From positions 1-64,000 of the forward strand of contig NZ_SMJZ01000009.1 of the NCBI RefSeq assembly GCF_004348345.1: 64,000 nucleotides of DNA, written 5' to 3'. Positions within the stretch are counted from its first letter, which is position 1; each line of letters opens with the position of its first letter. A program made the translations under genes and the position numbers. Source of the stretch: Nonomuraea longispora. Its GTDB lineage: Bacteria; Actinomycetota; Actinomycetes; Streptosporangiales; Streptosporangiaceae. The notes under the pieces are model-generated. The model made no database searches. It saw only the letters and a program-made list of their open reading frames with translations, and had not been told where the DNA came from. Shown piece by piece: positions 36,917-39,334 of this stretch.

Positions 36917-36945
36917 GGGACATTCGGCCGTTTCACCTGTACAAT
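36917..36945 (+). promoter_or_regulatory. Candidate sigma70-type promoter
   Basis: GGGACA (36917-36922, four of six to TTGACA) and TACAAT (36940-36945, five of six to TATAAT) are separated by exactly 17 bp. The predicted start is near 36952, immediately before an ATG at 36953 and a hairpin beginning at 36957. Confidence 0.5.
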
Positions 36946-36952
36946 TGCAGTC

Positions 36953-37051
36953 ATGACCTTGGGTCCGAGCTTGTGGACGCAAGGCCGAGAAGGGGCACGG
37001 CGGCCCGCCTCGACGCGAGCAGGCCCTGCCCCCTCCTCTGATTCCGGATGA
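36953..37051 (+). CDS. Putative leaderless 32-residue peptide
   Basis: The ATG at 36953 coincides with the predicted transcription start, as in leaderless actinobacterial genes. The peptide begins MTLGPSLWTQGREGARR and ends at a TGA at 37049-37051. It has no recognisable family. Its frame spans the first two RNA hairpins, so translation would affect their folding, as in leader-peptide attenuators. Coding status is unproven. Confidence 0.3.
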   Translation: MTLGPSLWTQGREGARRPASTRAGPAPSSDSG

Positions 37052-37092
37052 TTGTCCGCTGACTCCAGGTGGGCGCCGGAAAACCGTTGGAA

Positions 37093-37126
37093 GAAGAGGT
37101 CTCCTGGGCAAACGGGAGACCTCTTC
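37093..37126 (+). terminator. Intrinsic terminator
   Basis: Perfect 12-bp stem GAAGAGGTCTCC (37093-37104) and GGAGACCTCTTC (37115-37126) with a 10-base loop, followed by GTCTTTCT. It is strong and T-richer downstream than usual for this genome. Confidence 0.75.
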
Positions 37127-37379
37127 GTCTTTCTCCCGAACGCACGGAGACAAATGCAGAAGGCTCGTTCACGCCCCGGTCACCTAGCGTGAGCACGAGC
37201 CGTCATGCCATGCTTGCCGCACTACGAGGAGCTCTCGCTCTCCTGTTTGCCCAGGAGTCGAGAAACACGAGCGCCTCATAGTCCCGGCGCCGAAAAGCGG
37301 TCGCATTCCGTGTCGCGCTTCGACGCATCACCTGGAGTCACGACCAAACACTGACATATCCGGATTCAAGGAGGTCGCG

Positions 37380-37742
37380 ATGGCGACATCGCCCGCACGT
37401 TCCCGCAGCAGCCGCCGCCCACAGGCCCCCGCCCCCGTTCAGCCGTCCGGCGGGACCGCGTCCTGGGCGATCGCATTCATGAGCGCGCTGGCCACCTACC
37501 CGGTCTTCGTGGAGATGCTGCTTCCCCAGGGCTACAGCCTGTGGGTGGCCGTGGCCGTCGCGTCCGCGGCCTGCCTGGGCGCGGGCCGGGCCACGCAGAT
37601 GATGTCGTCCGGCCCGGCCCGCCAGGGCGCGGCCGGCGCCGTGCTCACCCCTTCGTTCATCGCACGGGTGGCGACGCTGGTCATCCGGGCCGCCGTCACA
37701 CCGCGCCTCCAGGACAACGACCCGCCGGACACAACGCCATAG
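37380..37742 (+). CDS. Small hypothetical membrane protein
   Basis: A 120-residue protein. Residues 1-25 are basic and Pro-rich (ATSPARSRSSRRPQAPAPVQ). Two hydrophobic spans follow at about 29-50 (WAIAFMSALATYPVFVEML) and 52-70 (YSLWVAVAVASAACLGAG), and the tail contains RVATLVIRAAVTPRLQD. I recognise no family. The ATG at 37380 has a perfect AAGGAGG five bases upstream, strong evidence that it is translated. It lies 250 bp after the terminator of the candidate structured RNA and might be controlled by it. Confidence 0.65.
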   Translation: MATSPARSRSSRRPQAPAPVQPSGGTASWAIAFMSALATYPVFVEMLLPQGYSLWVAVAVASAACLGAGRATQMMSSGPARQGAAGAVLTPSFIARVATLVIRAAVTPRLQDNDPPDTTP

Positions 37743-37924: not shown

Positions 37925-39334
37925 GTGGAACCCTTCATCGGCAGGCGACGAGAGCTGGCTGCCCTCGCGCGTGCGCTCGAAAAGACGAATCGCCGTCACT
38001 TCGATCGGCCCGGACGCGCACTCCTGATGAGAGGACGCCGCCGGGTCGGAAAATCCAGGCTGGCGGAGGAGTTCATCCGGCAGGCGCAGGTGCCTCACCT
38101 GTACTACACGGCGACGGGGCAGACGCTCCGTGAAGAACTCCACATCTTCACGGACGAGGCGTCATCGTCGAACCTCCCCGCCGCTTCCGTCTTCGATGTC
38201 GAGCACCCCGAATCGTGGCACGACGCGCTTTCCCTCCTGGCACGCGCCCTGCCCGAACACTCCCCTAGCATCGTGGTCATCGATGAGCTCCCCTACCTTG
38301 TCAAGGCAGATCCCACGCTGGAGAGCGTGCTGCAGAAGCTCTTCGACAGGGAGTTCTCGAGACTGCCGGTCCTGCTTCTCCTCATCGGCTCGGATCTGTC
38401 GATGATGGAGGCCATCAACACCTATGGCCGCCCCTTCTACCAGCGGGCCGCCGACTTCATCGTGGGCCCCCTCACACCGTACGACGTCGGACAGGCTCTT
38501 GATCTGCCCCCTGAGGCGGCGTTCGACGCACACCTGGTTTCAGGCGGGTTGCCGATGATCTGTGAGGAGTGGCCCAAGGGCGCCCCACTCTGGGCATATC
38601 TGGAGCAGGCACTCCACGACCCGCTGTCGGCTCTGGTCGTCAGCGGCGAGCGGGCCCTCGCCGCCGAATTTCCACCAGAAGCGCATGCCCGCCAGACCCT
38701 GAACGCCATCGGGTCGGGCCAGCGCACACACTCCAACATCGCGGCCGCCACCCAGGGGATTTCGCGCGCGACGATGAACCGCGCACTTCAGCTTCTGCTC
38801 GAGAAGCGCATGATCGCTGTGGACCGGCCCTTGTCGACGCGCCCCTCACGAGAGTCGCGCTACCGCGTCATCGACTCTCACTTGCGCTTCTGGATTCCCT
38901 TCATCGCCAACCGCCTGACGGACATCGAACGCGGCCGGGGAGACAAGGTCCTGGAGCGGATCCGCAGCTCTTGGACATCATGGCGCGGAGTCGCCGTCGA
39001 GCCCCTGATCCAGGAGTCGCTTCGCCGTATGGACGGCCTGCCCGAGGCGACGGGAGCGATCGGAGGCTTCTGGACCAGGACCAACGATCCGGAGATCGAC
39101 ATCGTCGGCGCAGACCGGGAGCCGGTCGCTAAGCAGATCACGATGGTCGGGTCCGTCAAATGGCTGGAGAACCGCCCGTTCGATCATCATGACCTGAGCG
39201 AGCTCATCGTCCACCGGTCCAAGATGCCCGGAGCCGACTCCTCCACGCCGCTCTACGCCGTCTCCCGCAGCGGCTGCGAGGTGGAGGGCGTCACGCACAT
39301 CACCGCTGAACACCTGGTCGACGCCTGGCGATGA
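37925..39334 (+). CDS. AAA ATPase with winged helix and C-terminal nuclease-like domain (DUF234 type)
   Basis: A 469-residue archaeal-type ATPase (COG1672-like). Walker A GRRRVGKS is at 37-44 and Walker B VVIDE at 117-121, with a sensor-like LLIGSDLSMME after it. A winged helix spans about 270-330 (IAAATQGISRATMNRALQLL). The C-terminus has a PD-(D/E)xK-like core: Glu390 and Asp392 in PEIDIVGAD, and Lys412 in VGSVKW, where the usual acidic residue before xK is Ser. The GTG at 37925 follows GGAGG by four bases. Palindromes on both sides suggest autoregulation or element ends. The biological role of the family is unclear; toxin-like or mobile functions have been proposed. Confidence 0.8.
   Translation: MEPFIGRRRELAALARALEKTNRRHFDRPGRALLMRGRRRVGKSRLAEEFIRQAQVPHLYYTATGQTLREELHIFTDEASSSNLPAASVFDVEHPESWHDALSLLARALPEHSPSIVVIDELPYLVKADPTLESVLQKLFDREFSRLPVLLLLIGSDLSMMEAINTYGRPFYQRAADFIVGPLTPYDVGQALDLPPEAAFDAHLVSGGLPMICEEWPKGAPLWAYLEQALHDPLSALVVSGERALAAEFPPEAHARQTLNAIGSGQRTHSNIAAATQGISRATMNRALQLLLEKRMIAVDRPLSTRPSRESRYRVIDSHLRFWIPFIANRLTDIERGRGDKVLERIRSSWTSWRGVAVEPLIQESLRRMDGLPEATGAIGGFWTRTNDPEIDIVGADREPVAKQITMVGSVKWLENRPFDHHDLSELIVHRSKMPGADSSTPLYAVSRSGCEVEGVTHITAEHLVDAWR

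What the first reader, a model, noticed from the sequence alone, without database searches (positions are those of the whole stretch)
36917..37379. Candidate leaderless peptide, structured RNA and terminator: a possible new attenuator or sRNA
A promoter with 17-bp spacing fires at an ATG (36953) opening a 32-codon frame containing one Trp. Two folded stems lie within the frame and a perfect 12-bp terminator follows at 37093-37126. The ensemble looks designed, matches no RNA family I know, and stands before a small membrane protein gene with a perfect ribosome site.
Basis: partly seen in the sequence, partly recalled or inferred. Interest (0 to 1): 0.6.

Follow-up and report, generated by a model that had tools for sequence, protein, structure and literature searches.

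The report
Antisense small RNA beside membrane-protein gene
In a soil actinomycete a short folded RNA encoded just upstream of a small membrane-protein gene carries loops that match that gene's own messenger RNA, and in related species RNA and target have changed together, which points to a built-in RNA switch that keeps the membrane protein off.

Summary
Stems, promoter-like site and terminator-like hairpin are real; the leaderless peptide and the attenuator are not supported. The stretch 36951-37135 is a conserved ~185-nt four-hairpin RNA, present with the downstream gene in five Nonomuraea genomes, with a divergent counterpart in a sixth (G036). Its loops are complementary to the leader of the 120-aa membrane-protein gene at 37380: A (37060-37071) to A' (37329-37340), B (37106-37113) to B' (37245-37252), and in some loci C (37032-37057) to the Shine-Dalgarno region. 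Over six loci, 9 of 12 A pairs and 5 of 8 B pairs show compensatory change (hand alignment). A conserved promoter-like site precedes the gene: 138-166 nt from the ATG in five loci with the RNA, 38 nt in three without it. Best reading: a tandem, gene-linked antisense sRNA that represses translation. It works like a type I antitoxin, but membership is unproven: the proteins are 98-130 aa (153-187 aa in the three loci without the RNA) and toxicity is untested. No Rfam, Pfam or NCBIfam family covers it. There are no transcript data.

The parts
36917..36945 (+). promoter-like site of the small RNA; the -10 TACAAT (36940-36945) is conserved, the -35 is not
   Evidence: TGTAC[AG]AT in 5 of 5 loci
36951..37135 (+). 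small RNA, about 185 nt, four hairpins P1-P4 (start and end inferred)
36957..36984 (+). hairpin P1 (36957-36966 with 36975-36984)
   Evidence: compensatory change in 3 of 10 pairs over 5 loci; 4 of 50 cells are not standard pairs
36987..37038 (+). hairpin P2; its 3' arm is CU-rich and part of contact C
   Evidence: folds; alignment
37032..37057 (+). contact C, complementary to the Shine-Dalgarno region C'
   Evidence: share of 500 head-shuffles of the leader part that reach the own energy: G000 0, G008 0, G014 8%, G036 14%, G021 33%, G048 80%
37042..37081 (+). hairpin P3, which carries loop A
37060..37071 (+). contact A, TGACTCCAGGTG, perfectly complementary to A' 37329-37340
37093..37126 (+). 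hairpin P4, terminator-like; loop GGGCAAAC (37106-37113) is contact B
37206..37214 (+). extended -10-like site TGCCATGCT of the mRNA (start inferred near 37221)
   Evidence: pattern TG[CT]CA[ACT][GA]CT found in 8 of 8 loci examined, 3 of which lack the sRNA (G036 not examined)
37245..37252 (+). contact B' GTTTGCCC in the mRNA leader, apex of a small predicted hairpin (CTCCTGTTTGCCCAGGAG)
37329..37340 (+). contact A' CACCTGGAGTCA in the mRNA leader
37353..37374 (+). contact C', includes the Shine-Dalgarno sequence AAGGAGG (37368-37374)
37380..37742 (+). 120-aa small membrane protein: basic N-terminus, one strong and one weaker hydrophobic segment, C-terminal helix
   Evidence: helices also in a low-confidence model

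Best explanation
A tandem antisense module. A ~185-nt noncoding RNA is made from its own promoter (36917-36945) and ends at the P4 hairpin near 37130. The next gene has its own promoter (37206-37214) and a ~160-nt leader. The RNA meets that leader at up to three places in antiparallel order: loop B with B' (a kissing contact), loop A with A', and linker C with the Shine-Dalgarno region C'. Pairing blocks ribosome access and probably also leads to cleavage, so the small membrane protein is repressed unless the RNA runs short. Shown here: conserved RNA, complementarity, compensatory change between RNA and leader, joint presence of RNA and long leader, a conserved second promoter-like site. Inferred: transcription, two separate transcripts, the sign of regulation (repression), RNase involvement, and any toxicity of the protein.
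For: RNA, order and gene are conserved in five genomes, with the same layout in G036. A-A' has compensatory change at 9 of 12 pairs and B-B' at 5 of 8 over six loci (hand alignment). The longest perfect sRNA-leader match is 18 nt in G008 and 17 nt in G036, against 12 and 14 as the maximum of 200 leader shuffles each; these two leaders match the other five sRNAs at 7-12 nt only. G036 adds an 11-nt match covering its Shine-Dalgarno. C covers the Shine-Dalgarno strongly in G000 and G008. In the 64-kb window, both strands, the nested hairpin-plus-two-repeats layout occurs once, here; over the other fetched loci (796,214 bases, both strands) it occurs outside copies of G000 and G014 once, in L110. 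CCTGGAGTCA occurs 6 times in the 9.16-Mb genome, two of them being A and A'; the pattern read backwards occurs twice. The promoter-like site is found in 8 of 8 loci examined; the long leader is there in the five with the sRNA and not in the three without.
Against: No expression data. In G021 the longest perfect match is 9 nt, inside the shuffle range (max 11), and in G000 it equals the shuffle maximum (13). Contact C is not significant in G021 and G048; the own leader is the best partner of C in 3 of 6 loci only (G000, G008, G036), and sliding 45-nt pieces of the sRNA, some overlapping C, reach an energy lower than C in 6 of 6. A loose gapped complementarity score is reached by 19, 44, 149 and 230 of 300 shuffles in G021, G048, G008 and G036 (0 in G000, 1 in G014). 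Folding the leader with A' and B' occupied does not clearly change Shine-Dalgarno exposure. The RNA model built without G036 scores G036 at 27.9 bits, little above an ordinary terminator in G041 at 25.3, so common descent of the G036 RNA rests on layout and complementarity. Much of the A and B covariation comes from G036 and G008. The T tract after P4 is weak except in G036.
Confidence: 0.7

Rival explanations
1. One long structured leader: P4 is not a terminator, RNA and leader are one transcript, and A-A', B-B' and C-C' fold in cis into a large riboregulatory 5' UTR of the membrane-protein gene.
For: A..B..B'..A' is perfectly nested, and nested cis pairing predicts the same covariation as antisense pairing. 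The T tract behind P4 is poor in five loci.
Against: A conserved extended -10-like site lies between the halves and sits 38 nt from the ATG in three loci that lack the RNA. G036 has TTTTTT after the hairpin. The stretch from hairpin to gene varies in length (195-305 nt in five loci, 391 in G036).
Confidence: 0.2
2. True type I toxin-antitoxin pair: the membrane protein is toxic and the sRNA is its antitoxin (a stronger form of the best explanation, so the odds overlap).
For: Hydrophobic protein, adjacent sRNA complementary to its leader and in some loci to its Shine-Dalgarno, patchy distribution (10 of 249 genomes of the order), neighbours of the window's gene shared only with G014 among nine loci, and one sRNA-only genome, G042.
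Against: Proteins are 98-130 aa in the six sRNA loci and 153-187 aa in the three others, not under 60; three genomes keep the gene without a detected sRNA. Toxicity was not tested.
Confidence: 0.3
3. Attenuator with a leaderless Trp-containing leader peptide.
For: ATG close to the predicted start; the terminator-like hairpin follows.
Against: Frame not conserved; 15 of 17 changes between G000 and G014 fall in amino-acid-changing codons; no exact antiterminator of 6 nt or more in the window; a promoter-like site lies between hairpin and gene.
Confidence: 0.03
4. Trans-acting sRNA with many targets, its neighbour being just one of them.
For: An orphan copy of P3-P4 in G042 without the gene.
Against: The A' core occurs only 6 times in the genome, two of them A and A' themselves; in a cursory look the other four lie in long open frames, none seen to be a gene leader (one of the four was not printed on its own). 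Loops of G008 and G036 changed together with the neighbouring leader.
Confidence: 0.1

Closest known systems
Type I antitoxins istR-1/tisB, orzO/zorO, ohsC/shoB, agrB/dinQ (E. coli)
   Same: sRNA gene beside, not opposite, its target; pairing with the long 5' UTR of the toxin mRNA (passages of PMC4147584).
   Different: Those are divergent, and their antitoxins are said not to overlap the translation start (same passages). Here the genes are in tandem with up to three contacts, in some loci one over the Shine-Dalgarno; the protein is about twice the usual size limit and toxicity is unknown. Parallel orientation has been described for some antitoxins (passage of PMC8167048).
OxyS-fhlA two-site kissing interaction
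   Same: Loops of a folded sRNA meet two separate sites in a leader, one at the ribosome site (recalled; PMC2946933 seen only in a search listing).
   Different: OxyS is encoded far from fhlA and has many targets (recalled); here the RNA is encoded next to its target.
Antisense RNAs of plasmid copy control (ColE1 RNAI, CopA)
   Same: Loop sequences and targets change together and give new specificities (recalled).
   Different: Those are encoded opposite their target (recalled); here the complementarity comes from inverted repeats and the target is a membrane-protein mRNA.

Membership tests
Type I toxin-antitoxin system | RNA antitoxin complementary to the mRNA of a neighbouring gene | tested here: met
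   sequence complementarity and its covariation; binding itself not tested
Type I toxin-antitoxin system | toxin a small hydrophobic protein, typically under 60 aa | tested here: not met
   98, 120, 121, 124, 124 and 130 aa in the six sRNA loci, hydrophobic but longer; size norm from passages of PMC11264685
Type I toxin-antitoxin system | the protein is toxic when made without the RNA | not testable with these tools
   three genomes hold the gene without a detected sRNA, which speaks against strong toxicity
Type I toxin-antitoxin system | RNA represses translation or stability of the mRNA | not testable with these tools
   contact C over the Shine-Dalgarno suggests it in some loci; leader refolding inconclusive
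Transcription attenuator with leader peptide | conserved short open frame in the leader | tested here: not met
Transcription attenuator with leader peptide | antiterminator alternative to the terminator | tested here: not met
   in the window no exact complement of 6 nt or more to the hairpin arms upstream; G-U pairs and the other loci not tested
Rfam families (release 15) | match at the gathering score | tested here: not met
   0 matches in the window; eight sub-threshold matches with no evident link

The most novel reading that the evidence does not exclude
A genus-level family of re-programmable antisense RNA / membrane-protein modules in Actinomycetota: a fixed hairpin scaffold whose loops and matching leader sites switch together to new specificities (G008 and G036 against the rest), with RNA and target leader gained or lost as one unit. 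If the protein is growth-inhibiting it would be a type I-like toxin-antitoxin system in tandem layout in actinomycetes, a group for which four library searches (judged from their listings) returned no paper evidently describing one.
Probability: 0.3. Interest if true: 0.65.

Novelty: new variant of a known kind. Interest (0 to 1): 0.5.

Why it matters
Gene-linked antisense RNAs are well known in enterobacteria and Firmicutes; to my knowledge (recalled, and four library searches by listing) few are described in high-G+C actinomycetes. This locus is a compact, testable case in which RNA and target have changed together within one genus, so specificity could be tested by exchanging loops, and it suggests a control mechanism for a membrane protein family that Pfam and NCBIfam do not cover.

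Tried and rejected
Attenuator/leader peptide: rejected. Known RNA family: none. Known protein family: Pfam gave only weak matches below its cut-offs, NCBIfam none, for 5 proteins. Plasmid or phage link: no match of 36940-37400 as DNA in plasmids, none of the protein in phages, none in viral contigs. Wider spread: in the phylum search 17 of 396 genomes matched at E<=0.05, the own genome strongly, the next best at 5.4e-4; the 16 others were not followed. The genome-contig scan, with a single peptide pattern, gave 6 loci, all Nonomuraea. The G036 protein in 250 genomes of the family: 37 with matches at E<=0.01, among them the known G048, G008 and G121; I read the frames at 8 loci and tested upstream repeats at 4; no sRNA layout held up. 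G041 (L066/L094) had a hairpin loop complementary to a later site, but its frame is broken and the hairpin looks like an ordinary terminator: rejected. Second RNA-model hit in G021 (C9): judged by eye a terminator after a gene. G155, matched, has an internal stop and was judged chance. G121 has a distant protein but no inverted repeat reaching its leader. Leader refolding with A' and B' occupied: no clear effect. RNAduplex of whole sRNA and leader: own pairs not better than shuffles or than other loci, and uninformative because self-structure is ignored. Gapped complementarity score: not significant in G021, G048, G008 and G036. AlphaFold model: low confidence (mean pLDDT 57.1, pTM 0.24), helices only, so no fold search was run. 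Rows dropped: of 9 genomes matched, four (G025, G036 at another place, G019, G013) had matches of 36-45 nt and were not followed; of 11 none beyond G036 itself was followed. Of 13 genomes, seven new ones at 34.6-37.3 bits were not studied one by one. The layout scan is strict: it recovers G000 and G014 only, not the other four loci. The header printed says 500 shuffles; 200 were run. P1, A and B pair counts use an alignment made by hand.

Full report
What is there. Rfam has nothing at its thresholds. The window belongs to a genome of a genus of which 54 genomes were searched; the relatives recovered by name are Nonomuraea, 6 of 6.

Relatives. A DNA search of the 281-bp stretch matched 9 of 54 genomes of the genus; a search with the downstream 120-aa protein matched 5 of 200 of the family (one of them, G155, judged chance). 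Four relatives (G014, G021, G048, G008) have RNA stretch and gene in the same order. A profile of five proteins matched 10 of 249 genomes of the order: these five loci, G028, G033 and G035 (gene without the RNA), G036 (distant protein, E 1.7e-4) and G121 (distant protein, layout not found).

Structure. The RNA is predicted to fold into hairpins P1-P4; the hairpins are clear in G000, G014, G021 and G048, while the single-sequence fold of G008 differs in P2-P3. P3-P4 over seven sequences: 28 pairs, 8 with compensatory change, covariation term -1.04 only (P3 columns are imperfectly aligned there and several of its pairs are broken in 1-2 sequences). P1: 3 of 10 pairs with compensatory change (hand alignment). 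The peptide frame is read only in G000 and G014; of 17 nucleotide differences between them 15 are in amino-acid-changing codons, and they fall outside the P1 pairs and the base of P2.

Complementarity. Loop A of P3 and loop B of P4 are complementary to two sites in the leader of the gene, in nested (antiparallel) order. In N. cavernae (G008) a C-to-G change in A is matched by G-to-C in A'. In G036, 9 of 12 letters of A and 4 of 8 of B differ from the window and the leader differs to match: 17 nt perfect at A, 6 of 8 pairs at B, plus 11 nt over the Shine-Dalgarno. Counted over six loci, A-A' has compensatory change in 9 of 12 pairs with one non-standard cell of 72; B-B' in 5 of 8 pairs with four non-standard cells of 48. 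These counts rest on a hand alignment, and much of the change comes from G036 and G008. The longest perfect matches are 13, 14, 9, 15, 18 and 17 nt (G000, G014, G021, G048, G008, G036) against maxima of 13, 12, 11, 11, 12 and 14 in 200 shuffles each: above all shuffles in four, equal to the maximum in G000, inside the range in G021. A looser gapped score is significant in G000 and G014 only. A third contact joins the linker before P3 to the Shine-Dalgarno region; it is strong in G000 and G008, suggestive in G014 and G036, not a signal in G021 and G048, and the own leader is the best partner in 3 of 6 loci.

Two transcription units. An extended -10-like pattern TG[CT]CA[ACT][GA]CT precedes the gene in 8 of 8 loci examined (G036 was not among them). 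It lies 138-166 nt from the ATG in the five loci with the RNA and 38 nt in the three without. So in these eight the long target leader is found only together with the RNA, and the gene seems to be transcribed on its own. In the 6-kb stretches of those three loci the RNA model finds nothing above 11.2 bits, and none in their genomes in the filtered searches.

Specificity and spread. In the window the layout is unique on both strands. The RNA model found 6 of 53 genomes in the genus: five with the gene and G042, which has P3-P4 without the gene (row G042: no match). It missed G036 there; scored without filters G036 gets 27.9 bits, close to an ordinary terminator at 25.3. In the family a second model, which includes G036 and G042, gave 13 of 269 genomes, the same six strongly (74.8-99.2 bits) and seven at 34.6-37.3. 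The A' core occurs six times in the genome, the reversed pattern twice, and no other obvious target was seen in a cursory look.

Protein. 120 aa, net positive N-terminus, one strong and one weaker hydrophobic segment (the second falls below the cut in G014) and a C-terminal helix (the model is of low confidence). No family. The window gene's neighbours (PNP, phosphomutase, ATPase) were found beside it only in G014 among nine loci, with flanks of a few kb; G028, G033 and G035 look alike among themselves by eye.

Interpretation. A gene-linked antisense RNA that represses a small membrane protein explains the nested complementarity, the joint change of loops and leader sites, the contact over the Shine-Dalgarno where it is seen, and the joint presence of RNA and long leader. 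It works like the type I antitoxins of E. coli that sit beside their targets and pair with a long 5' UTR (passages of PMC4147584), here in parallel orientation, which is known for some antitoxins (passage of PMC8167048). I do not file it as a type I toxin-antitoxin: the protein exceeds the usual size (passages of PMC11264685), toxicity is untested and three genomes have the gene without a detected RNA. The sRNA-only genome G042 recalls orz-only E. coli strains (passages of PMC11264685). The main rival is a single cis-folding leader, which the internal promoter-like site and the strong terminator of G036 speak against but do not exclude.

Noticed in passing
L039 2694-2781 (G042:C29:20693-20780, minus strand): Orphan copy of hairpins P3-P4 with the same A core as N. 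cavernae, but no gene of the family found in that genome and no TGTACAAT-like motif seen upstream: a relic or an sRNA-only locus.
   Followed up: partly
L031 (G036:C1:6544500-6550500): The divergent G036 module lies within a few kb of a stretch that reads like an insertion-sequence transposase (judged by eye), and its small protein ends in a proline-rich tail.
   Followed up: no
L067 and L070 (G120, G150; another genus of the family): Small proteins of about 80 aa with two hydrophobic segments and the motif QGYD behind AAGGAGGAAG, weakly similar to the G036 protein; longest upstream inverted repeats 9 and 11 nt.
   Followed up: partly
window 37925-39334: The gene after the membrane protein encodes an archaeal-type AAA ATPase-like protein (label recalled, no family search); its relative in G014 (67% identity) is also next to the module.
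   Followed up: no
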